A program made the position numbers and the translations under genes. 64,000 nucleotides of DNA from the NCBI RefSeq assembly GCF_003967015.1, contig NZ_AP017560.1, forward strand, positions 62,001-126,000, written 5' to 3'. The notes below the pieces were generated by a model. It worked only from the letters and a program-made list of their open reading frames with translations, was not told the DNA's origin and did not search any database. The DNA comes from Pseudanabaena sp. ABRG5-3 (GTDB taxonomy: Bacteria > Cyanobacteriota > Cyanobacteriia > Pseudanabaenales > Pseudanabaenaceae). Shown here piece after piece: positions 1,474-60,365 of the stretch (the first letter of the stretch is position 1; the number at the start of each line of letters is the position of its first letter).

Positions 1474-2598
1474 TTAAAAATTTGGAATATGTCGAACCTT
1501 GCAGGGCAAACTCACTGTAAAACAACTTCCTTCCTCTAATTTACTATGTACTTCAACCTTACCACCATGTAGTTCAACGATTCTCTTGGTAAATGCGAGT
1601 CCTAACCCTATACCATTATTTTGGCGGTTGTAACTCTTGTCAAATTGATTGAAGGGTTGAAATAATTTATCTATTTCTTGTGGTTCAATGCCTATACCTG
1701 TATCTATTACAGAAATCTGAATAGTAGTTGTTTGCTCAGGTAGTATATAGTCTAAATTATGCTTAACTATTAAATTGATAAGCCCATCGTTGGGAGTGAA
1801 CTTGACGGCATTTTGAAGTAAATTGACCAATACTTGGAACATCCGTCTTTCATCGATCATTAAGTAGGGAAGGTCTTCAGCAATATTTACTTCGATTTGA
1901 ATTGATTTTTGACATGCTTCCGCTTGGATCTGCTCTATTGCTGAGTGACAGATTGGTGTAATTGGTGCTAGATCACTTTGTAATGTAAGCTTTCCTGCTT
2001 CCAACATTGATAGATCGAGAATTCGATTAATCGTTTTGAGTAAATGATTGCCACTGCTGTTAATGGCTTGTAAAGCTTCTATTTGCTCTGAATTAACTGT
2101 ACCGAGCATCTCTTGCTTTAAGCAATCTGAGAATCCTAAAATTGCATTGAGGGGGTTGCGTAGTTCCTCTCTAATAATTGAGAGAAACTTTTCTTTGAGA
2201 ACTGATTCTTGATCCTCTTTTTGTCTAGCGCTATGGGTTGTTAAAGCAATCGTAATAGTCGAAAGAAGCTGCTCACTACGGAATGGTTTGACTACATATC
2301 CCATAGGATTGGTTAATTGAGCACGCTTTAGAGTTTCTGTATCTGAAAAAGCTGAGAGATATACAAGGGGAATATCACAGAAGGATTGAATAAATTTAGC
2401 AACATCTATGCCATCTATTTCTCCTTTAATCCGAATATCAAGTAAGACTAAATCAGGAGAAAATTCTAAGATCTTTTTAATTGCAGTCTCGCCATCCGAA
2501 GCGATCGCACAGATTATATAGCCTTCATCTTGAAGTATTTGAGCAATATCTCGTGCGACTAATCTTTCATCTTCAACTATTACTACTCTGATACTCAA
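1474..2598 (-). CDS. Response regulator-histidine kinase fusion with altered H-box
   Basis: The 374-residue protein has an N-terminal receiver domain (about 4-120; acidic patch VEDE, phospho-acceptor Asp in LLDIRIKG, conserved Lys in VVKPF). A dimerisation helix follows (about 135-205), then a HATPase domain (N-box LVNLLQNAVKF, G-box DTGIGIEP, GLGLAFTKRIVELHGG). In the H-box, where the family reads SHELR, this protein reads REELR, so the phospho-accepting histidine is replaced by glutamate. The ATPase motifs look intact. It may therefore not autophosphorylate in the usual way and could act as an ATP-dependent regulator or partner of another kinase. The start is a TTG at 2598 preceded by AGAGG; no in-frame ATG lies near. 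The next gene upstream is the giant cyanobacteriochrome kinase, about 350 bp away in the same direction. Confidence 0.85.
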   Translation of the reverse strand: MSIRVVIVEDERLVARDIAQILQDEGYIICAIASDGETAIKKILEFSPDLVLLDIRIKGEIDGIDVAKFIQSFCDIPLVYLSAFSDTETLKRAQLTNPMGYVVKPFRSEQLLSTITIALTTHSARQKEDQESVLKEKFLSIIREELRNPLNAILGFSDCLKQEMLGTVNSEQIEALQAINSSGNHLLKTINRILDLSMLEAGKLTLQSDLAPITPICHSAIEQIQAEACQKSIQIEVNIAEDLPYLMIDERRMFQVLVNLLQNAVKFTPNDGLINLIVKHNLDYILPEQTTTIQISVIDTGIGIEPQEIDKLFQPFNQFDKSYNRQNNGIGLGLAFTKRIVELHGGKVEVHSKLEEGSCFTVSLPCKVRHIPNF

Positions 2599-2951: not shown

Positions 2952-5900
2952 TTAAAGAACAGGGAAAATTACTTGGAACTTAGTTCCATGCTCACTGCTA
3001 TAAATCAGGTGTCCTTCCAGTTGCTCGGTTAGGCTATGCACTAGCTGCATTCCCAAGCTATCAGTGTTTTCTATATCAATTTCTTGAGGAATACCAATTC
3101 CATTGTCTGCAATAGTTAAACGGTATTTATTTTCAGTTTGTATTAATTGGATATTGATCTCACCCGACCCATACGGAAACGCATATTTCAAAGTGTTAGA
3201 TATTAGTTCATTAATGATAAGCCCTAGAGGGATAGACTGATCGAGTGGTAAGAAAATATTAATAACATCTAATTGGTATTGAATATTTGCTGAGGTATTG
3301 CCATAGCACTGAAATAGATTGGAGAGTAGGTCGGATATATAGTCATGAAAATCAATACTAGCTAGATCATCATTGCGATGTAATTGGGCATGAATTAATG
3401 CCATAGATTGAATCCGATTTTGGTAATCTTCAATCAAGATTTTAAGATCGGGCGTAGTTTTACGGAATTGCATTCTCAAGAGGCTAGACATCACTTGTAG
3501 ATTATTTTTGACTCGGTGATGTACTTCTTTGAGTAGTACTTTCTTCTGGTGTAATTCGTTAGCTAACTGGATATATAGTGTTTCTTTATCTGCTAGTTCT
3601 TCCTGCACTTGTTGATATAAGTTTGCCTGTTGAATAGCGATCGCTAATTGATTACTAATTTGCTGGATGAGGATGATTTCCTCTGTTTCCCAATTGCGCG
3701 GCGATGAACATTGATGAATACAAATGAGTCCCCAGAGTGATAAACCGTTGAGCAATGGTACAACTAAATTTGCTCTAATCTGAAATGCCGCTAAAATATC
3801 AATATGACATTGCGAAAGTTCAGCATTGTAAATATCTCCTACAGCTTGATAGCCTCCATGTCTGTAAGACTCAGAATATCTCTTGCCAAAACAATCATCG
3901 TGACAGGGAATTTTGATTACTGAAGAAAACCCAGCAACTACAGATTCAGCAACAAATTCACCATCATTAAAATTAGAGGCAGGGTCAAATTTGAAGATGC
4001 CAACACGATCTGATTGCAGAAATTGGCGAATTTCTAGGGTGGCAGTCTCAAAAATAGTATGCAGATCAAGGGATTGACGAATCCTTTGGGTAATCTCACG
4101 TAGTAAGGATTCTCTATCTGCTTGTTGGCGAATGAGATTCTCGGCATGTTGCCGATCGCGCAGTTCCAGTTGCAGTTGTTGATAGAGGCTTGCCTGTTGA
4201 ATGGCGATCGCTAATTGGTTGCTAATTTGCTGGACGAGGGCAATTTCATTGCTTTCCCATTTTCGAGGTGATGAACATTGATGAATACATAATAGCCCCC
4301 AGAGGCTATTGCCACTTAGCAAAGGTACTACTAAGTTTGCCCGCACTTGGAATGCTACCAAAGTATTAATGTAGCATTCCAAAAGTCCTGACTCATAAAT
4401 ATCATCCGTTGCATAAAATTTTCCGTGGGTAGGCAGTTCGGTTAATTCGGGAGAAAAACAGTGATCATGGACTTTGACTGCTACGATGGAGCTAAAACCC
4501 TCTACTACAGATTCAGATACAAACTTGCCATCGTGAAAATCAGATTCGTGATCAAATTTGAAGATACCAACACGATCTGCTTGTAAAAATTGTCGAATCT
4601 CTGAAGTGGCTGTCTCAAAAATAGTATGCAGATCAAGGGATTGACGAATACGCTGCATAATCTCACGCAGTAAAGCCTCTCTATCTACCTGTTGGCGAAT
4701 GAGATTCTCCGCATGGCGGCGATCACGTAGTTCCAGTTGCAGTTGTTGATAGAGGCTTGCCTGTTGAATGGCGATCGCAAATTGGCTAGATAACTGCTGC
4801 ATCAGATCTATTTCCCAATCTTGCCAATGACGTGGGCGGTCGCATTGATGAGCAATCAGCAATCCCCAAAGTTTTTCGTCTTGAATGATTGGGACGACCA
4901 GCTTGGCTCTTACTCTGATTCCTTTGAGAAATTCTACTAGGCATGGTAACACTGGCTCAATCTCAAGATCGCTGAGCGCATAAACCCGTCCTTGTAGATA
5001 TTGTGCTTGGATCTCATTGGGAAAAACTTCTTCACTATAGGTGTTATTTAGGATTGATTGACAGCCAGAACATACAGATTCAGCAATAGCTGCCCCTGTT
5101 CCATCGGCAAATACTTGATAAACCAATACTCTACTTGAGTTTAAGACCTGATGTATTTCCGCAACAGTTGTATTTAGGATTTCTTCAAGGTTAAGGGAAG
5201 CCCGAATGCGCTGCGTAATTGAAGAAATTAGCTTTTGCTGCTCTGTCTGCTGAATTACTTGAAACTCAGCAGTTTTACGATTAGTTATTTCTAGGACAAT
5301 GCCATGACGTACTACATCGCCATTCTGGCGTTTAAAGATATGTATATCTGTCTCATGCACTTTTTCTAGGAAAGCACTAATCTGTAACCATTTAACCTTA
5401 CCTGAAGGAGTGATAATGCGCCATTCATGACTAAAAGGCAATAAATTCTCGGCACTACGATTTAAGGCTTTGAGAAAACTTTCTTGATCTTCAGGATGAG
5501 TGCGATCGTAAATAAATTGAGGGTTATTGAGAGCTTCCTCCACCGTAATTTCATAGATTCTTTCAACGCCAGAGCTTACATACTCGAAATATCTTGATCC
5601 ATCGGGACGTTGAATAGCTGTATAGATAATTCCAGGTAAAGTTTCGGCGATCCTTTCAAATCTTCTCTCACTTTCACGCAGAGCTTCTTCAGCAATTTTG
5701 CGATCGGTTATTTCTAAAACAATGCCATGCCGAGCAATATCTCCACGTTGGCGGTTTAATAGCGCGACATCAATTTCTTCTATCTTTTCGGGTAAAGATC
5801 TAACCTGTAACCATTTAATCTTACCTGAAGGAGTAATAATGCGCCATTCATAATTAAATGGGGTCATCGTTGCAACACTATGATTAGCCGCAGCAACAAA

Positions 5901-8000
5901 ACCTGCTCGATCATCGGGATGGTGTCGATCATCAAGCCATTTCGGATCTTCTAATATTTGCTCAACTGTTAGTTCACTGATTTTCTCGACTCCCGAACTA
6001 ATGTATTCAAAATAATGGAAACCATCTACACGTTGAATCATCGTATAAATCATCCCAGGCAGAGTTGCAGCAATGCGCTCAAATCTTCTCTCACTGATGC
6101 GTAGTGCTTCTTCTGCACGCTTCTGTTCGCTAATATCTCGAACTAAAAGCAAAACCTCGTCGTTAGCATAGGGGACAATTCTTACTTCCTCAACTTGAGT
6201 TTTTCCATCAATGAGAAGAATCTGTTCATATATTTGAATAGAATTAGTATCTAATGCTTTGCAAATATATTCAATGCGTTGTTGTGCTAGCTCATGGGAT
6301 AGAATTTGTGAGATGTTGATTCCTACCAAATCATTACTATTACCAAAGACATGGAAATTGGGACTGGCAAGAAATTCCAAATAAATTCCTTCGCGATTAA
6401 TTCGCATGAGTAAGTCTGGAAGCGCACTGATTAAAGCCCGTTGATGGGCTTCGCTTCTTTGTAAAGCTTCTTCATAGCATTTGCGATCAGTGATGTCTTG
6501 AGCGCTGCCAATTACCAACAAGATATTACCTTGCTCATCTCGACTAAATACAGCATCACGGCTATGCAGCCAACGCCATTCTCCATTAGCATGTTGCATA
6601 CGGTAGTCCATATCGATGATTGTGCCATCTTCCGCAACATGGAGTCGCGCTAAATTAATCGATACTTGACCAATGTCATCGGGATGAATCAGTCTTTGAA
6701 AAAGATCTGCCCCCATGTCCTGAACGTCTTGGGTCGTGTATCCAAGTATGGAATAAATCTCTCGGTTCGCGTAGATGTTTCGCCGCTCTTGTACGTTGTA
6801 TAGATAAAGAATGTTTGGGGATGCCTCTGCGATTTGCTGAATAAATTTTTGACTTTCTCGAAGCTCAGCCTCAACTTTTTGGCGATCGCTGAGTTCTTGT
6901 TGTAGTTGTTGATAGAGTACTTGCTCTCGGTGCAACTGCTGCTGTAAATTGACCTCACTTTGATTGCGCTCAATGGCAATACTAGCTGCATAGATATAGT
7001 TCTTAATTACCTTGATTTCTTCTATCGATGGTTGTAGTAATTCTCGATAATATAGAATGCAAAAACCAACAATTTTTTGTTTGCTACGAGCAAGAATTGG
7101 ATAAATCCATAGGCTCTTAAACCCATAAGATAATGCTAGATTTTTATATTCTTGTAAATATGAAAGTGTAATTTCGCTTATATTTATACTATTCCCTTCA
7201 GACTTGTTACTAAAAATAGGTGTGATTTTCTCCAGAGAAATACCATTGATCACAGGGCTGAAATCTATTGGCAAATTAGGTTCAGCAATACATTTGAGGT
7301 TACCTTGATTATCAATTACTAAAATAGAACATAAAGCATCATTGGTCTGTAAATCAATTAATTGCGAAAGTAGATTAAATGTTTCTGCAAGGGGATCGCC
7401 CATTGCAATGCAGCCTAGGCAACGATTTTGGATTTCCAGTAATGATTCTGAAAGATTATATTTACTGCATTCTCTCTTTATATCTTGTTCAAAAAATGAT
7501 TGCTGTTTTTGGGGTTGTTTCGTCTCTGGTGCAGAAAAACTATGGGCAAATATAAATTTTTGGAGCTTTCTCTCTGTAGCGTCGAGGGTGTAGTTTAACT
7601 CCGTTTGAGCGATCGCATTTCTAATCGCAGCAAAAATTAATTCCTTAGAGAGTGTTTCTTTAACTAGATAATCTTGATACTTTTGGGCGATCGCAGCTAC
7701 TAATTCTTCTTGATCTGCACTTAATAAAATAACGACGGGGATTTGTGTGGCACTTAGTTTTTCTAGGAAATTTACTCCATCAAGATGAGGAAGATCCCAG
7801 TCTAATAGGACACAATCTGGAGCTTGGTTGAGACAAATCTGTAAAGCTTCTAAATATGATGTAATAGGCTGAATTTGATAGCAACTTTGCCGATATTCAA
7901 CATCACTGTCAGTGGGTAACAAATTTTGATGAACAAGATCGTCATAGCTATCTGTAATGATTAAAACTTTACGTTTATTAGTAGCTGTGGATTTGTTCAT
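2952..8000 (-). CDS. Giant hybrid sensor kinase with two complete DXCF-type cyanobacteriochrome GAF domains
   Basis: 1682 residues. Order: receiver (about 8-125, Asp in LLDWDLP), GAF (185-345), four PAS/PAC units (about 385-905), three GAF domains (about 910-1455), HisKA_2/HWE-type phospho-acceptor (EVHHRVKNNLQ at about 1492-1502) and HATPase (to 1680). The last two of these GAFs carry the DXCF motif (DHCF, Cys1181; DDCF, Cys1370). Each also has the canonical bilin cysteine exactly 28 residues later (Cys1209 in ECY; Cys1398 in QCH). This is the two-cysteine layout of DXCF cyanobacteriochromes such as PixJ. The first of the three keeps a cysteine at the canonical site (Cys1020) but has EEVF in place of DXCF. 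The protein is probably a soluble photoreceptor using a heme-oxygenase-derived bilin. ATG at 8000. It carries its own N-terminal receiver, so it may be an intermediate in a relay. Confidence 0.85.
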   Translation of the reverse strand: MNKSTATNKRKVLIITDSYDDLVHQNLLPTDSDVEYRQSCYQIQPITSYLEALQICLNQAPDCVLLDWDLPHLDGVNFLEKLSATQIPVVILLSADQEELVAAIAQKYQDYLVKETLSKELIFAAIRNAIAQTELNYTLDATERKLQKFIFAHSFSAPETKQPQKQQSFFEQDIKRECSKYNLSESLLEIQNRCLGCIAMGDPLAETFNLLSQLIDLQTNDALCSILVIDNQGNLKCIAEPNLPIDFSPVINGISLEKITPIFSNKSEGNSINISEITLSYLQEYKNLALSYGFKSLWIYPILARSKQKIVGFCILYYRELLQPSIEEIKVIKNYIYAASIAIERNQSEVNLQQQLHREQVLYQQLQQELSDRQKVEAELRESQKFIQQIAEASPNILYLYNVQERRNIYANREIYSILGYTTQDVQDMGADLFQRLIHPDDIGQVSINLARLHVAEDGTIIDMDYRMQHANGEWRWLHSRDAVFSRDEQGNILLVIGSAQDITDRKCYEEALQRSEAHQRALISALPDLLMRINREGIYLEFLASPNFHVFGNSNDLVGINISQILSHELAQQRIEYICKALDTNSIQIYEQILLIDGKTQVEEVRIVPYANDEVLLLVRDISEQKRAEEALRISERRFERIAATLPGMIYTMIQRVDGFHYFEYISSGVEKISELTVEQILEDPKWLDDRHHPDDRAGFVAAANHSVATMTPFNYEWRIITPSGKIKWLQVRSLPEKIEEIDVALLNRQRGDIARHGIVLEITDRKIAEEALRESERRFERIAETLPGIIYTAIQRPDGSRYFEYVSSGVERIYEITVEEALNNPQFIYDRTHPEDQESFLKALNRSAENLLPFSHEWRIITPSGKVKWLQISAFLEKVHETDIHIFKRQNGDVVRHGIVLEITNRKTAEFQVIQQTEQQKLISSITQRIRASLNLEEILNTTVAEIHQVLNSSRVLVYQVFADGTGAAIAESVCSGCQSILNNTYSEEVFPNEIQAQYLQGRVYALSDLEIEPVLPCLVEFLKGIRVRAKLVVPIIQDEKLWGLLIAHQCDRPRHWQDWEIDLMQQLSSQFAIAIQQASLYQQLQLELRDRRHAENLIRQQVDREALLREIMQRIRQSLDLHTIFETATSEIRQFLQADRVGIFKFDHESDFHDGKFVSESVVEGFSSIVAVKVHDHCFSPELTELPTHGKFYATDDIYESGLLECYINTLVAFQVRANLVVPLLSGNSLWGLLCIHQCSSPRKWESNEIALVQQISNQLAIAIQQASLYQQLQLELRDRQHAENLIRQQADRESLLREITQRIRQSLDLHTIFETATLEIRQFLQSDRVGIFKFDPASNFNDGEFVAESVVAGFSSVIKIPCHDDCFGKRYSESYRHGGYQAVGDIYNAELSQCHIDILAAFQIRANLVVPLLNGLSLWGLICIHQCSSPRNWETEEIILIQQISNQLAIAIQQANLYQQVQEELADKETLYIQLANELHQKKVLLKEVHHRVKNNLQVMSSLLRMQFRKTTPDLKILIEDYQNRIQSMALIHAQLHRNDDLASIDFHDYISDLLSNLFQCYGNTSANIQYQLDVINIFLPLDQSIPLGLIINELISNTLKYAFPYGSGEINIQLIQTENKYRLTIADNGIGIPQEIDIENTDSLGMQLVHSLTEQLEGHLIYSSEHGTKFQVIFPVL

Positions 8001-11467: not shown

Positions 11468-11619
11468 CATTTTGGGTCTTAACTTTATAGACTTAGAACT
11501 AGGGCTAAAATGATGCTATGGATATGATAGGGGGGTGTTTATTAATTCTTTATACATTTATGTAAATAAACCTATCAAACCTGATTCTTTAGATAATTTG
11601 TAATTTGAAAAGTCTCACT

Positions 11620-14600
11620 ATGTCGTTTAACTTGTCTATCACTAGCTTAGGAGAAATTTTAGATCGCATTACTACGCTCTCTTTGCGAATACATTCTGCT
11701 GCTAGTTTAGAGGAGATGTTAAACGTTACTGTCGAGCAAACAAGAGAGTTGTTAGATTGCGATCGCGTATTGATCTATCAGTTCCTACCCAATGGAGATG
11801 GGGCAATTACGGCTGAGTCTGTGGGGGTAAAAGTGAAATCAGTTCTAGGGGAATTGATTTACGATCCTTGTTTTTCTCAAAAATGGCAGGGGCTTTATCT
11901 AGAAGGAAGGTTTAGTGTGATTGAAGATACACAGACTAAGCCAATGGAATCTTGTTATGCCAATTTGCTCGAGAGGATGCAGGTCAGGGCAAATCTAGTC
12001 ATGCCGATTTTGATTGGACAAAAAACATCAAAATATCTATTTGGGTTGCTGCTTGTGCATCAGTGCGATCGCCCCCGCCAGTGGCAAAATCAAGAGATTA
12101 GCCTACTACAAAATATTGCTACACAACTGGGAATTGCCCTACGAAATAAGACCCAAAGGAAGAAAATAGAAGCAAACATTATCGCAAGTACGAAACGTTG
12201 GCAATATGCTATGGATAGTAGTGGTGATGGCATTTGGGATTGGAATTTCCAGACTAATGAGATTTTCTTCTCCCACCGATGGAAAAATATGTTGGGATTT
12301 GCAGATCATGAAATTAGCAATAAATTAGAGGAATGGAAGAATCGTGTTCATCCTGATGATCTTGATCAAGTCTATATAGATATTGAGAAGCATTTGCGTG
12401 GCGAAACTCCACAATATGTGAATGAACATCGACTGAAATGTAAGGACGGGAGCTATAAATGGATTTTGGATCGAGGTTTGGTTTTTAGTTATGATGCCGA
12501 TGGAAAACCCTTACGATTTATTGGTACGCATGTTGATATTAGCGATCGCAAAAAAGTAGAATCAGCACTACAAGAAGCTGAAGCTAGGCAGAGAGCTATT
12601 CTCGAATCTATGCCTGACTTGATTTTGCGAGTGGATCGTGATGGATCATGTTTAGATTGTATGATGCCTACGAACTCGGAACCTAATCAGTTTGTGCCAA
12701 TTGCTAAGCATTTATCTGAAGTCTTACCTCCCGATCTATTAACAATTCAACTGCAAGCAATTGAACGAGCGATCGCTACTAAAGAGTTGCAAATATCCAA
12801 TCATCAACTTTTGAAATTTGGGAAACTTGCCTATGAGGAAGTACGGGTCGCAGTGATTAATGAGAATGAAGCTTTGGTCATCGTTCGCGATATAACCTCT
12901 CAGGTAGAGATATCAAGAAGATTGAAGCAGATCTCGCACAATGTGCCTGGGGTGATTTATCAGTATCGCCTCAGACCTGATGGTACTGCCCATTTCCCCT
13001 ATGCTAGCCAAGGTATTCGCGATATTTACGATCTTTCTCCTGAAGAAGTGATTCAAGATGCTTCTTCTGTTTTTGATCGTCTCCATCCAGATGATATAGA
13101 GCATGTGGGACAGACAATCATAGATTCTGCCCAAAATCTGACCGTGTGGCAATGTGAATATCGAGTATGTTTTGACGATGGTCGGATCATTTGGGTTGAA
13201 GGTCAGGCAACCCCACAACGAGAACCTGATGGCAGTACTCTCTGGCATGGTTACATTACGGAATGTACGCGGCGTAAACAATCAGAAATTGATTTGCAGC
13301 AGAGTGCTACAAAATTGGGAGAAGCCTATGCTGAGCAAAATGCTCTATTTGCGGCGATGTCTGATTTGGTGTTCATCCGCAATTCTGAAGGCAAGTGTCT
13401 TAAAATCGTAACTCATGATATCCATAATTTGTTAGGTACTCCTGAGGAAGTGCTGAGTCGATCAATTACGGAGGAACTTCCTCAACCAGCAGCTAGCATT
13501 ATCCTGCTAGCAATTCGAGAAGCTCTAGTTACTAAGAAAATCGTAAGTTGTGATTATTTTTTAGAGCTGCATGGCAAAGTTGCTTGGTTTTCATCAAATA
13601 TTTCACCTATTGCTCACGATAAAATTATTCAGATTGCCAGAGATATTACCGAGCGCAAGCAAGCCGAGATTGCCCTTGCACAGGCAAAGGAAACTGCGGA
13701 AGCTGCCACTAGAGCTAAGAGTGAGTTTCTGGCGAATATGAGCCACGAAATTAGAACGCCTATGAATGGTGTCATTGGCATGACAGATTTGCTCATATCT
13801 ACATCACTCAATAATGAACAGTTGGACTATGTGCAAACGATTCGAGATAGTGGCAATATTCTTCTCTCCATTATTAATGACATCCTTGATTTTTCTAAAA
13901 TTGAAGCAGGAAAATTAGAGCTTGAAAAACGTCCTTTTGTTTTAGTGGATGCGATCAAATCTATCGGTCAGATCTTGAGTAAGCAATTTGCTAATCAAGA
14001 AACTACATTAAAATATGCGATCGCTGCTGACGTTCCTCATTCGATTATTGGTGATGTTTCGAGATTAAGTCAAATCTTGATTAACTTAATAGGGAATGCC
14101 ATCAAGTTTACGAAAAAGGGAGAAGTCACCTTAACCGTTAATTATCTGCGACCTTCACAATTACAATTTACAATTCAGGATACAGGTATTGGCATATCTA
14201 GCGATCGCCTTAACAGACTGTTTCAAGCCTTTGCACAGGCGGATACCTCGATCAATCGTCGCTATGGTGGTACAGGGTTGGGTTTGGTAATTTGCAAATC
14301 TCTAGTGAAGTTGATGGGTGGTACTATTTGGGTAGAGAGTAAAGGTGTCATTGGTGGCGAACCGCCTGTGGTCTGGCAAACAAGATCTGCTACTACTCAA
14401 GGTTCTACTTTCTACTTCACCATCACTCTGCTATCGACTGCCAAGGCGATCGCGACTACAGATATGCCTGTGAATATGGGGAATGAGAGTTTGATGGCTG
14501 AGCAATTTCCTCTCAAGATTTTAGTTGTAGAAGATAATCCTGTAAATCAAAAAATTGCTATGCTCATGATTTTAAAACAGTTTGGTTATCATGTTGATGT

Positions 14601-14904
14601 TGCTAACAACGGTATAGAATCTGTCAATAAGGTCTCTCAAGGGGCTTATGATCTGGTGTTTATGGATGTACAGATGCCTGAGATGGATGGATTAACGGCG
14701 ACTAGGTTAATTCGGGCTAATCTCTCCATTTCAGTACAACCCTATATTGTGGCGATGACTGGAAATGCTATGCCAGAGGATCGCCAAGCTTGTTTTGATG
14801 CGGGGATGAATGATTACATCAGTAAACCAGTGAGAAGTAACGAAATTGCCCGAATGTTTGCTCAATATAGAGAATTTGCTGTAAATCGCGACTCTATCAA
14901 ATAA
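11620..14904 (+). CDS. Hybrid histidine kinase with N-terminal DXCF cyanobacteriochrome GAF
   Basis: 1094 residues from the ATG at 11620; an in-frame TTG at 11605 would add five residues. Order: GAF (about 10-175), four PAS/PAC units (190-680), HisKA (SHEIRTP, His709), HATPase (to about 905, GGTGLGLVICKSL) and a C-terminal receiver (about 955-1080, Asp1016 in FMDVQMP). The GAF has DPCF (Cys84) and the canonical cysteine in SCY (Cys112), 28 residues apart as in DXCF cyanobacteriochromes, then QVRANLVMPIL. It therefore probably binds a bilin through two cysteines and drives an internal phosphorelay from His709 to Asp1016. No output domain is attached, so a separate phosphotransfer protein or regulator is needed. 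It ends one base before the convergent TPR-CHAT gene. Confidence 0.85.
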   Translation: MSFNLSITSLGEILDRITTLSLRIHSAASLEEMLNVTVEQTRELLDCDRVLIYQFLPNGDGAITAESVGVKVKSVLGELIYDPCFSQKWQGLYLEGRFSVIEDTQTKPMESCYANLLERMQVRANLVMPILIGQKTSKYLFGLLLVHQCDRPRQWQNQEISLLQNIATQLGIALRNKTQRKKIEANIIASTKRWQYAMDSSGDGIWDWNFQTNEIFFSHRWKNMLGFADHEISNKLEEWKNRVHPDDLDQVYIDIEKHLRGETPQYVNEHRLKCKDGSYKWILDRGLVFSYDADGKPLRFIGTHVDISDRKKVESALQEAEARQRAILESMPDLILRVDRDGSCLDCMMPTNSEPNQFVPIAKHLSEVLPPDLLTIQLQAIERAIATKELQISNHQLLKFGKLAYEEVRVAVINENEALVIVRDITSQVEISRRLKQISHNVPGVIYQYRLRPDGTAHFPYASQGIRDIYDLSPEEVIQDASSVFDRLHPDDIEHVGQTIIDSAQNLTVWQCEYRVCFDDGRIIWVEGQATPQREPDGSTLWHGYITECTRRKQSEIDLQQSATKLGEAYAEQNALFAAMSDLVFIRNSEGKCLKIVTHDIHNLLGTPEEVLSRSITEELPQPAASIILLAIREALVTKKIVSCDYFLELHGKVAWFSSNISPIAHDKIIQIARDITERKQAEIALAQAKETAEAATRAKSEFLANMSHEIRTPMNGVIGMTDLLISTSLNNEQLDYVQTIRDSGNILLSIINDILDFSKIEAGKLELEKRPFVLVDAIKSIGQILSKQFANQETTLKYAIAADVPHSIIGDVSRLSQILINLIGNAIKFTKKGEVTLTVNYLRPSQLQFTIQDTGIGISSDRLNRLFQAFAQADTSINRRYGGTGLGLVICKSLVKLMGGTIWVESKGVIGGEPPVVWQTRSATTQGSTFYFTITLLSTAKAIATTDMPVNMGNESLMAEQFPLKILVVEDNPVNQKIAMLMILKQFGYHVDVANNGIESVNKVSQGAYDLVFMDVQMPEMDGLTATRLIRANLSISVQPYIVAMTGNAMPEDRQACFDAGMNDYISKPVRSNEIARMFAQYREFAVNRDSIK

Positions 14905-56321: not shown

Positions 56322-57053
56322 ATGAGTCACCTAGCTAACCGTCTGCGCGAAGGTACACAGAAATCACATACTGCCGCAGAGAACACAGCATTTATGAAAT
56401 GCTTTCTCAAGGGAATTGTGGAGACCGTTCCTTTTAGGAAACTATTGGCAAACCTTTATCTTGTGTATAGCACCCTCGAAGAGGAATTTCGTCGGCATCA
56501 GCAACATCCTATTGTTGGCAAATTATATTTCCAAGAACTCAATCGCCAACAAAATTTAGAACAGGATTTAGCCTTCTATTATGGTGAAAATTGGCGTTCA
56601 GAACTTGTGCCTTTAAAAGCAGGACAAGTTTATGTCGATCGCCTCAAGGAAATTTCTAATACCGATCCTGCATTGCTGATTGCCCATTCCTATACCCGTT
56701 ATATGGGCGATTTATCTGGTGGTCAAGCCCTGAAACATATCGTGCGATCAGCTCTCGACTTACCCGATGAGCGTGGGACAACTTTTTACGAATTTGACCA
56801 ATTGCCAACAGTAGAAGCCAAGAAGGACTTTAAAGATAGATATCGTCAAGCTTTAGATTCCCTTGAAGTGGATGAGGAAACGGTTGAGAGAATTGTGGAA
56901 GAGGCAAATTATGCTTTTACCCTCAATCGGAATGTGGTTGATGAGTTAGAGGCAGATGTGAGAGCGGTCATTGATCCCCATGTATTCGAGCTACTCACCA
57001 AACAGGATCGTGTTGGTAGCACCGAACGTCGCGGACATCCTGTCACAGTATAG
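56322..57053 (+). CDS. ho: Biliverdin-producing heme oxygenase
   Basis: 243 residues. The proximal heme ligand is His16 in QKSHTAAENT, and the distal helix carries YTRYMGDLSGGQAL with the two glycines that kink over heme. It opens heme to biliverdin, CO and iron using ferredoxin, the first step towards phycocyanobilin for phycobilisomes and cyanobacteriochromes. The next genes are hemN, hemerythrin and acsF. This order recalls the low-oxygen set (ho2) of Synechocystis rather than the housekeeping ho1, but a second copy elsewhere cannot be checked. ATG at 56322. Confidence 0.95.
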   Translation: MSHLANRLREGTQKSHTAAENTAFMKCFLKGIVETVPFRKLLANLYLVYSTLEEEFRRHQQHPIVGKLYFQELNRQQNLEQDLAFYYGENWRSELVPLKAGQVYVDRLKEISNTDPALLIAHSYTRYMGDLSGGQALKHIVRSALDLPDERGTTFYEFDQLPTVEAKKDFKDRYRQALDSLEVDEETVERIVEEANYAFTLNRNVVDELEADVRAVIDPHVFELLTKQDRVGSTERRGHPVTV

Positions 57054-57090
57054 CGAGTTTTCATAGTGCCAAAGGCACTATGAAAACTCG
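57054..57090. terminator. Hairpin between heme oxygenase and hemN
   Basis: A 17-bp perfect stem (57054-57070 with 57074-57090) starts directly after the heme oxygenase stop. It may reduce read-through to hemN or protect the mRNA end; it may also be a palindromic repeat. Confidence 0.7.
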
Positions 57091-57167
57091 TAGGAATTTG
57101 CGGCTCGTCATTTAGGGACTTGCAACATGACTCCAGACAATATTTTTAATAAAGTTTATAAGATTTG

Positions 57168-58568
57168 ATGAATACATTAGAGCAAACAGTTAAATTCGAT
57201 ATTAATCTCTTACATAAGTACAACCAGCCCGTACCAAGATATACAAGTTATCCTCCCGCAACAGAACTCCATGAAAATTTTGAGCCAATCGACTTTCGTG
57301 GAGCGATCTCTGCGGGAAACTTGCAGAAGACACCATTATCACTCTATGCCCATATTCCTTTTTGTGATGCCCCCTGTTATTTTTGCGGCTGCAACACTGT
57401 AATTAGCACTCGCAAAGAAATTGCGGAACCCTATCTAGGATATTTGATTCGCCATATTGAGCAGGTTGCGGCAACGGTAGATCGCGATCGCCTCGTCCAA
57501 CAGATGCACTGGGGCGGCGGTACTCCCAATTATTTCTCCTTCGATCAAGTGGAGCGTTTGTGGCATTCTTTCCAAAAGTATTTTACCTTTGAGCAAGATG
57601 CCGAAATATCCATTGAAGTAAATCCGCGATCGCTAACTAAGGAATATCTACAGGGCTTAAGAGATCTCGGTTTTAACCGCATTAGCTTTGGTATTCAGGA
57701 TTTTAATCCCCAAGTTCAAGAAGCAGTCAATCGGATTCAGCCTGAAGACATGCTCTTTGATGGAATGCGCTGGATGCGTGAGGTTGGATTTGAAGGCGTG
57801 AATGTGGATCTGATCTATGGATTGCCCTATCAAAACCTAGAAACATTCCGTGAAACCCTCGATAAAACCATTGCTCTCAATCCCGATCGCATTGCCGTAT
57901 TTAACTTTGCCTATGTGCCTTGGCTAAAGCCCTTACAAAAGAAGAAGATTGATCCTGCGACTTTACCTTCCCCTGAAGAGAAGTTGCAAATCATGGAAAT
58001 GACGATCGCAACATTGACTAAGCATGGCTATGTGTTCATCGGTATGGATCACTTCGCTAAGCCCAATGATGAATTAGCGATCGCCCAGCGTCAAGGAAAA
58101 CTACACCGCAATTTTCAGGGATACACCACCAAACCTGAATCTGACCTCTTGGGCTTTGGCATGACTTCCATCAGTATGTTGCAAAATGTCTATACCCAAA
58201 ATCATAAGGGTTTACAGGACTTTTACAAGGCGATCGATGCAGGGGAGTTACCTATTGAGCGTGGGGTTAAGCTGAATGCTGATGACATTTTGCGTCGTTC
58301 CATCATTATGGAATTGATGTGTCAATTTGAACTCTCTCAGAGTGAAATTGAATCTAAATATCATCTAACCTGCGATCGCGATTTTGGTAAATACTTTGCC
58401 GATGAACGCTTAAAATTGCGCCAATTAGAGGCTGATGGCTTGATTGAGTTGAGACAAGACCACATTGAGGTCAAGCCTGCGGGAAGGTTGCTCATCCGTA
58501 ATATTGCCTCGGTCTTTGATAGCTATCTCGCCAAAAATGAGACAGGCAGATTCTCGAAATCTATTTAA
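57168..58568 (+). CDS. hemN: Oxygen-independent coproporphyrinogen III oxidase
   Basis: 466 residues. It begins PVPRYTSYPPATELHENF, the HemN signature, and has the radical-SAM cluster cysteines Cys66, Cys70 and Cys73 plus Cys75 in CDAPCYFCGC. GGGTPNYF, EVNPRSLT and the C-terminal HemN domain (RGVKLNADDILRRSIIMELMC) follow. It decarboxylates coproporphyrinogen III to protoporphyrinogen IX without oxygen, replacing HemF at low oxygen. Start at the ATG 57168; the TTG at 57165 is adjacent. The last codons form one arm of a 24-bp palindrome. Confidence 0.96.
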   Translation: MNTLEQTVKFDINLLHKYNQPVPRYTSYPPATELHENFEPIDFRGAISAGNLQKTPLSLYAHIPFCDAPCYFCGCNTVISTRKEIAEPYLGYLIRHIEQVAATVDRDRLVQQMHWGGGTPNYFSFDQVERLWHSFQKYFTFEQDAEISIEVNPRSLTKEYLQGLRDLGFNRISFGIQDFNPQVQEAVNRIQPEDMLFDGMRWMREVGFEGVNVDLIYGLPYQNLETFRETLDKTIALNPDRIAVFNFAYVPWLKPLQKKKIDPATLPSPEEKLQIMEMTIATLTKHGYVFIGMDHFAKPNDELAIAQRQGKLHRNFQGYTTKPESDLLGFGMTSISMLQNVYTQNHKGLQDFYKAIDAGELPIERGVKLNADDILRRSIIMELMCQFELSQSEIESKYHLTCDRDFGKYFADERLKLRQLEADGLIELRQDHIEVKPAGRLLIRNIASVFDSYLAKNETGRFSKSI

Positions 58569-58597
58569 CATCAGTTAAATAGATTTCGAGAATCTGC
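58546..58597. repeat. 24-bp perfect palindrome overlapping the hemN stop
   Basis: 58546-58569 pairs exactly with 58574-58597, loop of 4 nt. The left arm encodes the last seven residues and stop of HemN. As the arm is coding, the repeat may have arisen by inverted duplication of the gene end or by repeat insertion that supplied a new stop. Likely also works as a terminator. Confidence 0.8.
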
Positions 58598-58712
58598 CAA
58601 CCCCCTCTCCCTTCATGGGAGAGGGGGAGTAAAACTAATTTCCTGTTCCCCTCTCCCAAAAGGGGAGAGGGGCTAGGGGTGAGGGTCTTGAAAGCTTCCA
58701 CGTAACACCAGT
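58598..58712. repeat. Intergenic CCCCTCTCCC/GGGAGAGGGG hairpins and a solo MITE end
   Basis: Two adjacent inverted repeats (about 58602-58629, ccccctctccc with gggagaggggg, and about 58650-58672) are followed by ctaggggtgaggg, a composition common in cyanobacterial spacers. Next, CTTCCACGTAACACCAGT (58694-58711) matches the end of the 140-bp MITE at 23227-23366 with one difference. Confidence 0.6.
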
Positions 58713-58758
58713 GATTTAGTGCAAAGCGCTAAACCGATAGTATCTATTATTAATTTCT

Positions 58759-59175
58759 ATGACACTGACTTTGACGAGACCGATCGCTTATTGGCATTCA
58801 GAATATGAAACTGGCAACTTACAGGTAGATCAAGAACATCAAGAACTTTTTGAAACCGTGAATGCATTGCATGATGCCGTGGTGACAAAGCAAGACTTTG
58901 ACACCATGTATGAAATCTTGAATCGCTTAGCTAGTCACACAGTTGAGCATTTTCAGACTGAAGAAGCCTTAATGTTGTCCGTAAATTATCCTGACTATGA
59001 GCGACATAAACAGACCCATGATCATCTCGTCAATAAGGTGTCTCATCTCTTAAAGAAATTTCGCGATCGCGATGCTGCCATTACTACCGATATCACCCAA
59101 TTCCTAACTGAATGGCTGACTCACCACATTAAGGGTGAAGACCAGAAGATGATTCAATTTTTCCAAAATAAATAG
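58759..59175 (+). CDS. Bacteriohemerythrin
   Basis: 138 residues, one hemerythrin domain. The diiron ligands are in place: His in YWHSEY, the H...E pair in HTVEHFQTEE, His in HKQTHDHL, and HHIKGEDQ near the C-terminus (HxxxD-type end). It reversibly binds O2 at a non-heme diiron site and probably delivers or buffers oxygen for oxygen-requiring enzymes, or senses it. It sits between hemN and acsF. AcsF needs O2, so supply of O2 under low oxygen is an attractive role (inference). ATG at 58759. Confidence 0.93.
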   Translation: MTLTLTRPIAYWHSEYETGNLQVDQEHQELFETVNALHDAVVTKQDFDTMYEILNRLASHTVEHFQTEEALMLSVNYPDYERHKQTHDHLVNKVSHLLKKFRDRDAAITTDITQFLTEWLTHHIKGEDQKMIQFFQNK

Positions 59176-59288
59176 CTCTTTCCAGTCTCCCTTACAAAAG
59201 CATATTCTCTTCTTCCCCCTTTACAAGGGGGATTGATGGGGATCAAAAATCTCTAATTTTATAAAAAATTCTACAACTAATTACTACT

Positions 59289-60365
59289 ATGGTTTCTATT
59301 CAATCTAGACCCGAACCCGAACTACTCCGCGATGGCATTAAAATTCCTGTTAAAGAAACTCTATTAACACCAAGGTTCTATACCACCGACTATGATGCCG
59401 TTGCCCAAATGGATACTTCTTCGCAACAAGCGGAACTCGAAGCGGTGGTCGAAGAACTGCGTACGGACTACAATCGCAATCACTTCAAGCGTGATAAAGA
59501 GTTTGAACAGTCTTGGGAGCATATTGATGAGGAAACTCGCGCCGCCTTCATTGACTTTTTAGAGCGTTCTTGTACCTCCGAATTTTCAGGCTTTCTGCTG
59601 TTTAAAGAGTTATCCCGTCAACTCAAAGATCGTAACCCTCTCCTATCTGAAGCCTTTAACCTGATGGCTAGGGATGAAGCACGTCATGCAGGATTCTTGA
59701 ATAAAGCAATGAAGGATTTTCATCTATCGCTGGATTTGGTCAATATGACGAAAAAGCGCAGCTATACCTTCTTCAAACCAGAATGGGTAATTTACTCAGT
59801 TTACCTCTCTGAGAAGATTGGTTACTGGCGCTATATTCTCGTGCATTATCATATGCAGAAGCATCCTGAAAATCGCTTCTATCCTCTTTTCAAATACTTT
59901 GAAAGCTGGTGTCAAGATGAAAATCGTCATGGCGATTTCTTTAAAGTACTATTGCGATCGCAGCCCGATCTATGGGGCACTTGGCAAGCCAAACTCTGGG
60001 CGCGGTTCTTCCTATTGACCGTATTTGCCACCCACACAATCACGGTATTTGAACGGGCTGATTTCTATAAATCCATTGGTTTGGATGCCCGCCAATACAA
60101 TAAGGAAGTGGTGATCAATACTAACAAAACCTCGATCAGTGCCTTCCCTGCGGTGTTAGATACCAGCCACCCCGACTTTTTCCCCAGATTAGAGAAATGT
60201 GCGGACTACAATTTTAAACTGATGGCGATTAATGATAGCGATCGCCCCCAATTTGTGAAGACTTTACAAAAATGGCCCCTATTCCTCGCTATTTTCTGGC
60301 AATTGTTGCTGGTCTATCTACTCAAGCCCATTGATGCTGAAGCTCAACGTGGCACAGTTCATTAA
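59289..60365 (+). CDS. acsF: Magnesium-protoporphyrin IX monomethyl ester oxidative cyclase (aerobic, diiron)
   Basis: 358 residues. It has the AcsF motifs: ILTPRFYTTDYDAVAQMD-like start, ELRTDYNRNHF, FLERSCTSEFSGFLLFKEL, the diiron pairs MARDEARHAGFLN and CQDENRHGDFFK, and the C-terminal membrane-associated tail. It builds the isocyclic ring of chlorophyll with O2. In cyanobacteria with two copies, the one beside ho and hemN (ChlAII) is used at low oxygen; this context matches that copy. ATG at 59289; 113 bp after hemerythrin. Confidence 0.97.
   Translation: MVSIQSRPEPELLRDGIKIPVKETLLTPRFYTTDYDAVAQMDTSSQQAELEAVVEELRTDYNRNHFKRDKEFEQSWEHIDEETRAAFIDFLERSCTSEFSGFLLFKELSRQLKDRNPLLSEAFNLMARDEARHAGFLNKAMKDFHLSLDLVNMTKKRSYTFFKPEWVIYSVYLSEKIGYWRYILVHYHMQKHPENRFYPLFKYFESWCQDENRHGDFFKVLLRSQPDLWGTWQAKLWARFFLLTVFATHTITVFERADFYKSIGLDARQYNKEVVINTNKTSISAFPAVLDTSHPDFFPRLEKCADYNFKLMAINDSDRPQFVKTLQKWPLFLAIFWQLLLVYLLKPIDAEAQRGTVH

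What the first reader, a model, noticed from the sequence alone, without database searches (positions are those of the whole stretch)
2952..8000. Sensor kinase with two complete DXCF cyanobacteriochrome GAF domains in tandem
DHCF/ECY (Cys1181, Cys1209) and DDCF/QCH (Cys1370, Cys1398) each show the 28-residue spacing of two-cysteine DXCF cyanobacteriochromes, followed by FQ(V/I)RANLVVPLL. They are fused to a receiver, an extra GAF, four PAS units and a HisKA_2-type kinase. The combination of tandem DXCF sensors with an N-terminal receiver is unusual and may integrate violet/blue-green light with other signals.
Basis: partly seen in the sequence, partly recalled or inferred. Interest (0 to 1): 0.68.

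Follow-up and report, generated by a model that had tools for sequence, protein, structure and literature searches.

The report
Three-photosensor cyanobacterial histidine kinase with receiver

Summary
Window 2952-8000 (-) encodes a 1682-aa REC-GAF0-PASx4-GAF-A-GAF-B-GAF-C-HisKA_2-HATPase kinase. GAF-B and GAF-C carry DHCF/CY and DDCF/CH with 28-residue Cys spacing, as in TePixJ.

Three corrections. (1) GAF-A is a third, probably bilin-binding cyanobacteriochrome: its best solved relative by sequence is RcaE (E 4.8e-45) and it has Cys1020-Leu1021, Glu991 and Lys1033 in the RcaE pattern. (2) Adjacent two-Cys GAFs are common: 15 of 72 GAF stretches compared, a biased set. A receiver on a cyanobacteriochrome kinase has a solved precedent, PPHK (6oap). 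(3) What is uncommon is the set: RcaE-type followed by two DXCF domains occurs in 1 of 72 stretches, the window's own.

The best-matching locus in 9 other genomes of the genus never has the exact domain order, always has a REC-HK gene beside it (9 of 9, a likely phosphorelay partner), and shows sensor Cys and domains coming and going. GAF-B looks mosaic: its bilin segment diverges far more from GAF-C than its flanks do.

Best reading: a three-colour sensor with phospho-input feeding one kinase. Photochemistry and output are inferred. New variant of a known kind.

The parts
2952..8000 (-). 1682-aa multi-sensor histidine kinase gene
7596..7973 (-). N-terminal receiver (aa 10-135); aligns with the receiver of PPHK (6oap)
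   Evidence: Response_reg E 7.5e-13 on the isolated piece; i-Evalue 7.3e-9 to 6oap residues 6-132
6951..7445 (-). GAF0 (aa 186-350): GAF-like unit without a recognised bilin site
   Evidence: Pfam GAF E 0.15; hhalign to cyanobacteriochrome GAFs probability 21%, E 0.0011; conserved in 4 orthologs aligned
6465..6851 (-). PAS1 (aa 384-512)
6111..6464 (-). PAS2 (aa 513-630)
   Evidence: PAS_4 5e-06; limits
5685..6098 (-). PAS3 (aa 635-772), 61% identical to PAS4
5265..5684 (-). PAS4 (aa 773-912)
4743..5246 (-). GAF-A (aa 919-1086): RcaE/CcaS-like cyanobacteriochrome domain; Cys1020-Leu1021, Glu991, Lys1033
   Evidence: best PDB sequence match RcaE 8k9o E 4.8e-45; motif and spacing; model pLDDT 87, 48% identity to 8k9o
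4176..4691 (-). GAF-B (aa 1104-1275): two-Cys DXCF domain, Cys1181 and Cys1209
3609..4124 (-). GAF-C (aa 1293-1464): two-Cys DXCF domain, Cys1370 and Cys1398
4359..4520 (-). Bilin-pocket segment of GAF-B (aa 1161-1214) that diverges from GAF-C far more than its flanks
   Evidence: aa identity 24/54 against 124/146 in flanks, Fisher p 3.3e-8, borders chosen after a look
3303..3527 (-). HisKA_2 phosphoacceptor domain (aa 1492-1566), with His1494/His1495
   Evidence: (1.6e-27)
2958..3233 (-). HATPase_c (aa 1590-1681)
1474..2598 (-). Downstream REC-HisKA-HATPase gene, likely phosphorelay partner
   Evidence: Pfam; a matching gene, recognised by eye, lies beside the kinase in 9 of 9 other best-matching loci

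Best explanation
The protein is a multi-input histidine kinase. Shown by sequence: a receiver, four PAS units, one RcaE-type cyanobacteriochrome GAF (GAF-A), two two-Cys DXCF GAFs (GAF-B, GAF-C) and a HisKA_2 kinase. Inferred: each of the three GAFs covalently holds phycocyanobilin or phycoviolobilin. GAF-A switches between green and red by a change in bilin protonation. GAF-B and GAF-C switch from a blue-absorbing state, made by a second thioether from Cys1181/Cys1370, to a green, teal or yellow state, and are tuned differently from one another because their pocket segments differ. Also inferred: phosphorylation of the receiver by another kinase is a separate input, as in PPHK. The inputs act through helices that join the domains on the HisKA_2 domain, which passes phosphate to the receiver of the neighbouring REC-HK (1474-2598). 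The downstream output is not identified.
For: GAF-A to RcaE 4.8e-45, with the motif and spacing; Leu next to the Cys marks CcaS and RcaE (PMC9415938, passages). GAF-B/C Cys pairs and their clade. REC and GAF-C both align to the one PPHK chain, a structure also solved with BeF3-. Continuous helix between GAF-B and GAF-C in the pair model (residues 147-206; pTM 0.50, so the domain arrangement is uncertain). REC-HK neighbour in 9 of 9 other best-matching loci. Two separate proteins, RcaE (green/red) and DpxA (teal/yellow), jointly control one process in Fremyella (PMC4937213, passages).
Against: No spectra or binding data. In the tree GAF-A groups with RcaE only at SH-aLRT 82 in an unresolved fork, and the fold search ranks PPHK above RcaE for GAF-A. 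Orthologs have often lost the GAF-A Cys or the DXCF Cys, so individual modules may be dispensable or decaying. The kinase-to-partner transfer is inferred from gene order alone, with a gap of 353 bp between the genes.
Confidence: 0.66

Rival explanations
1. Only the two DXCF domains are photoactive; GAF-A is a structural relic that no longer switches.
For: In 8 orthologs with a GAF-A, 4 lack the Cys, 2 keep Cys-Leu but not the Glu, and only 2 keep Cys-Leu, Glu and Lys. One of the 4 without Cys, G004, is as near to the window's GAF-A in the tree as G025, which keeps the set (both 0.31).
Against: In the window protein, in G018 (91% identical GAF-A) and in G025 all three positions are intact. The loop before the Cys is two residues shorter than in RcaE, but the fold is predicted well (pLDDT 87).
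Confidence: 0.22
2. A chromatic-acclimation sensor of the RcaE kind that controls phycoerythrin.
For: RcaE-like GAF-A; RcaE and DpxA together tune phycoerythrin in Fremyella.
Against: No phycoerythrin subunit was recognised. Of 16 phycobilisome-family hits, 6 of the 8 strong ones were typed: two phycocyanin alpha and two beta subunits and one ApcB above their cut-offs, one ApcA-like below its cut-off. The other two strong hits and the weak ones were not typed. CcaR- or RcaC-like regulators were not searched for. Control of the two phycocyanin sets remains possible.
Confidence: 0.12
3. The sensor array is partly decaying; the receiver and PAS units are the working inputs.
For: Domain loss and Cys loss in relatives; a stop-bearing insertion in the G018 kinase.
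Against: The window gene is intact, and all five bilin-site Cys and the Glu, Leu and Lys of GAF-A are kept.
Confidence: 0.12

Closest known systems
PPHK, dual-sensor histidine kinase of Leptolyngbya sp. JSC-1 (PDB 6oap/6oaq/6ob8)
   Same: Receiver plus cyanobacteriochrome GAF on one chain; best PDB match of the whole protein (E 3.2e-57).
   Different: One GAF in the solved chain, without the DXCF second Cys (DQYF at that site in the alignment); no PAS array in that chain, no RcaE-type GAF. Its kinase type was not compared here.
RcaE (PDB 8k9o/7ckv), and CcaS
   Same: GAF-A: Cys-Leu, Glu and Lys in register with RcaE; 48% identity to 8k9o.
   Different: GAF-A has a loop two residues shorter, sits beside two DXCF GAFs and is in a HisKA_2 kinase. 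CcaS itself was not aligned here.
TePixJ (3vv4, 4glq) and other DXCF cyanobacteriochromes
   Same: DXCF and canonical Cys with 28-residue spacing.
   Different: GAF-B/C belong to a 31-row DHCF/CH clade in the tree that does not hold TePixJ; tandem; in a kinase, whereas the TePixJ chains are labelled chemotaxis proteins.
DpxA of Fremyella (teal/yellow)
   Same: A cyanobacteriochrome that acts together with a green/red one (PMC4937213).
   Different: A separate protein there; its sequence was not compared here.
Adjacent two-Cys GAFs in Calothrix sp. MO_167.B12 (a MAG) and Nostoc sp. FACHB-973
   Same: DHCF domains side by side.
   Different: No RcaE-type GAF found in those stretches.

Membership tests
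DXCF cyanobacteriochrome (GAF-B, GAF-C) | Canonical Cys and DXCF Cys, 28 residues apart | tested here: met
   TePixJ spacing
DXCF cyanobacteriochrome (GAF-B, GAF-C) | GAF domain inside the cyanobacteriochrome family | tested here: met
   PDB matches; tree
DXCF cyanobacteriochrome (GAF-B, GAF-C) | Covalent bilin, phycoviolobilin formation, blue-absorbing state | not testable with these tools
   needs expression and spectra
RcaE/CcaS green/red cyanobacteriochrome (GAF-A) | Leu directly after the bilin Cys | tested here: met
   Cys1020-Leu1021; the rule from PMC9415938 passages
RcaE/CcaS green/red cyanobacteriochrome (GAF-A) | Protochromic triad Glu217/Leu249/Lys261 of RcaE (residue numbers recalled) | tested here: met
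   Glu991, Leu1021, Lys1033 in register; RcaE spacing 32/44 agrees with the recalled numbers, GAF-A has 30/42
RcaE/CcaS green/red cyanobacteriochrome (GAF-A) | Clade with RcaE in a tree | tested here: inconclusive
   25-row fork with RcaE, SH-aLRT 82, inner order unresolved
RcaE/CcaS green/red cyanobacteriochrome (GAF-A) | Green/red photoconversion | not testable with these tools
   needs expression and spectra
PPHK-like dual-sensor kinase | Receiver and cyanobacteriochrome GAF on one kinase | tested here: met
PPHK-like dual-sensor kinase | Either light or receiver phosphorylation changes the output | not testable with these tools
   needs kinase assays

The most novel reading that the evidence does not exclude
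A single kinase works as a three-channel colour comparator: one protochromic green/red eye and two differently tuned two-Cys eyes, plus a phospho-input. The locus evolves colour vision by recombination between adjacent GAF cassettes, keeping the linkers and re-tuning only the bilin-pocket segment.
Probability: 0.25. Interest if true: 0.65.

Novelty: new variant of a known kind. Interest (0 to 1): 0.42.

Why it matters
How several light sensors in one chain are combined into one output is, to my knowledge, not settled. Here one locus gives a natural series, from one to three cyanobacteriochrome-type GAFs with Cys gained or lost, on related kinases and beside a matching partner gene. That makes signal integration, and how colour tuning evolves, directly testable by swapping or removing modules.

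Tried and rejected
Recent GAF-B/GAF-C duplication only in this strain: rejected. GAF-C pairs with the single DXCF domain of G018 (99/99), and holding B and C together is rejected (p_AU 0.000254; that group was named after one search had shown the tree).

A 100% identical 75-nt hit between the B and C stretches was my own overlap of the two query pieces; it is not a repeat and is not used.

Searches show it is PPHK and that 6uv8 is Anacy_2551g3. The tree itself is unaffected.

Phycoerythrin-type chromatic acclimation: made unlikely. GAF0 as another bilin domain: no support. Positive selection as the only cause of the GAF-B pocket divergence: less likely, because silent codon differences also rise there (12/24 against 17/74 in the 5' flank, Fisher p 0.019).

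Literature: 10 searches in an open-licence library; none of the listed titles or starts of abstracts described this protein. Hirose 2013 and Wiltbank 2016 are not held; Shin 2019 I saw only as a reference; none of the three was read.

Full report
WHAT IS THERE. The window lies in G000, a 5.66-Mb genome in 8 contigs. The ORF 2952-8000 (-) reads 1682 aa from ATG, with an in-frame TAG directly before it. Pfam gives a receiver, PAS, GAF (three stretches), HisKA_2 and HATPase_c. My domain limits: REC 10-135, GAF0 186-350, PAS1-4 384-912, GAF-A 919-1086, GAF-B 1104-1275, GAF-C 1293-1464, HisKA_2 1492-1566, HATPase 1590-1681. The spacing of 28 equals that of TePixJ as printed.

THE MISSED SENSOR. GAF-A's best solved relative by sequence is RcaE (8k9o, E 4.8e-45), ahead of PPHK (4.5e-40). 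It carries Cys1020-Leu1021. A Leu beside the Cys is the mark of CcaS and RcaE according to PMC9415938 (passages). Glu991 and Lys1033 align with the Glu and Lys of RcaE. The recalled triad numbers 217/249/261 agree with the RcaE spacing in the chain (32 and 44); GAF-A has 30 and 42 because of a two-residue shorter loop. The AlphaFold model of GAF-A has pLDDT 87. Its structural matches are PPHK in ranks 1-6 (42% identity) and RcaE in rank 8 (48%), so the fold search does not itself single out RcaE. In a 101-row tree GAF-A falls in a 25-row group with RcaE at SH-aLRT 82, unresolved inside.

THE TWO DXCF DOMAINS. GAF-B and GAF-C match cyanobacteriochrome structures at 1.8e-43 and 1.8e-45. They sit in a 31-row clade of DHCF/CH-type GAFs (98*) and, with the orthologs, in a 9-row clade of this locus (98*). 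The pair model (pLDDT 82, pTM 0.50) shows two GAF folds joined by a continuous helix, residues 147-206.

HOW UNUSUAL. One search typed the GAFs of 72 distinct stretches from the loci held (L001-L114, chosen by similarity to this protein, so biased, and including near-identical Nostoc strains). 'Two-Cys' there means a Cys in the third DXCF column and the canonical Cys; 'RcaE-type' means Cys-Leu with the Glu and the Lys. Adjacent two-Cys pairs occur in 15, the window's own included; RcaE-type then two-Cys in 2 (the window protein and G018); two-Cys then RcaE-type in 4; RcaE-type followed by two two-Cys GAFs in 1, the window protein. Named examples of adjacent pairs are in Calothrix sp. MO_167.B12 and Nostoc sp. 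FACHB-973. The N-terminal receiver has a solved precedent: the receiver and GAF-C both align to the PPHK chain (7.3e-9 and 1.6e-46). PPHK is described as a multidomain sensory histidine kinase of Leptolyngbya JSC-1 in PMC11480761 (passages). Rec-controlled kinases are called frequent in PMC13269768 (abstract and passages).

THE LOCUS IN RELATIVES. Of 26 genomes of the genus searched, 10 (the own one included) match the full protein at E <= 1e-100. The best-matching locus of each of the 9 others was fetched, with three further paralogous loci. None of the 9 has the window's order. A REC-HK gene resembling window 1474-2598 lies next to it in 9 of 9, and glgB in the fetched stretch in 6 of 9 (both recognised by eye from the printed N-termini). 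Sensor residues vary. Of 8 GAF-A orthologs 2 keep Cys-Leu, Glu and Lys (G018, G025), 2 keep Cys-Leu without the Glu (G019, G015), 4 lack the Cys (G004, G012, G001, G008). Of 8 DXCF-type domains at this locus 4 keep both Cys (G018, the first of G019, G023, G004), 3 have EDRF instead of DXCF (the second of G019, G012, G015), and 1 has lost both Cys (G025).

MOSAIC GAF-B. Between GAF-B and GAF-C, aa identity is 24/54 in the bilin segment (1161-1214) against 124/146 in the flanks (Fisher p 3.3e-8). Silent differences at codons for the same residue are 17/74 in the 5' flank, 12/24 in the segment and 19/48 in the 3' flank. GAF-C against G018 is even (19/76, 11/44, 10/56). A clade of B with C is rejected against the tree in which C pairs with G018 (p_AU 0.000254). 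At sites where B and C differ, the single G018 domain follows B in the stretch 1106-1125 (9 of 9) and C from 1156 onward (102 of 123, with 9 for B and 12 neither); 1086-1105 and 1126-1155 are mixed. This fits a B/C hybrid left by a deletion, or gene conversion of the flanks; the two were not separated. The segment borders were chosen after seeing the comparison, so the p-values are indicative. In G019 the two copies do not show this pattern (40/54 in the segment, 62/85 and 52/61 in the flanks).

MECHANISM. DXCF domains typically bind phycocyanobilin, turn it into phycoviolobilin and switch between blue- and green-absorbing states through the second Cys (PMC11284453, passages). RcaE switches green/red through bilin protonation (PMC8112840, passages). 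In Fremyella RcaE and the separate teal/yellow sensor DpxA together set phycoerythrin levels (PMC4937213, passages). The simplest reading is that this protein gathers such sensors in one kinase with a phospho-input, and passes phosphate to the neighbouring REC-HK. Every step after the domain identities is inference.

OUTPUT. Of 16 phycobilisome-family hits in the genome, 6 of the 8 strong ones were typed: two phycocyanin alpha and two beta subunits above cut-off, one ApcB above and one ApcA-like below cut-off. No phycoerythrin was seen among these, which speaks against a phycoerythrin role; the other ten hits were not typed.

Noticed in passing
window 11605-14904 (+), GAF at 11659-12174: A second cyanobacteriochrome-type kinase close by (GAF-PAS-HisKA-HATPase-receiver, TTG start as listed) with a two-Cys pair, Cys89 in DPCF and Cys117 in CY, spaced by 28; it has a long branch in the tree and no close partner.
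   Followed up: partly
G000 whole genome; L071-L094: The genome holds 24 hits to a cyanobacteriochrome GAF profile at E <= 1e-20, 4 of them in the window, and 63 Pfam GAF hits; five of the 24 lie at C1:142-160 kb, about 17-33 kb beyond the window's end.
   Followed up: partly
L001 (G000:C1:158 kb), L063, L067, L068: A different tandem, a DHCF/CH GAF followed by a Cys-Leu GAF with NEVW...CL and the Glu and Lys, occurs in 4 of 72 stretches, from three families's labels; the second domain forms a long-branched 100* clade of 6 rows. It was not compared with any characterised protein outside that tree.
   Followed up: partly
L029:9231-9416 (G018, Phormidium tenue FACHB-1050): The closest ortholog is interrupted between HisKA_2 and HATPase by an insertion of about 170 bp with 25-nt inverted ends (92%) and an 8-bp direct repeat GTTACTAA 172 nt apart, like a small transposable (MITE-like) element.
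   Followed up: partly
window 56322-60365 (+): Genes that look, by recall, like heme oxygenase, HemN-like oxidase and AcsF-type cyclase in a row, resembling a low-oxygen tetrapyrrole cluster; seen only in the ORF list, not tested.
   Followed up: no
window 5265-6098 (-): PAS3 and PAS4 are 61% identical. PAS4 was assigned in only 1 of the 9 other loci, G018, with G008 cut by its contig, so PAS units too seem to be gained or lost by duplication.
   Followed up: partly
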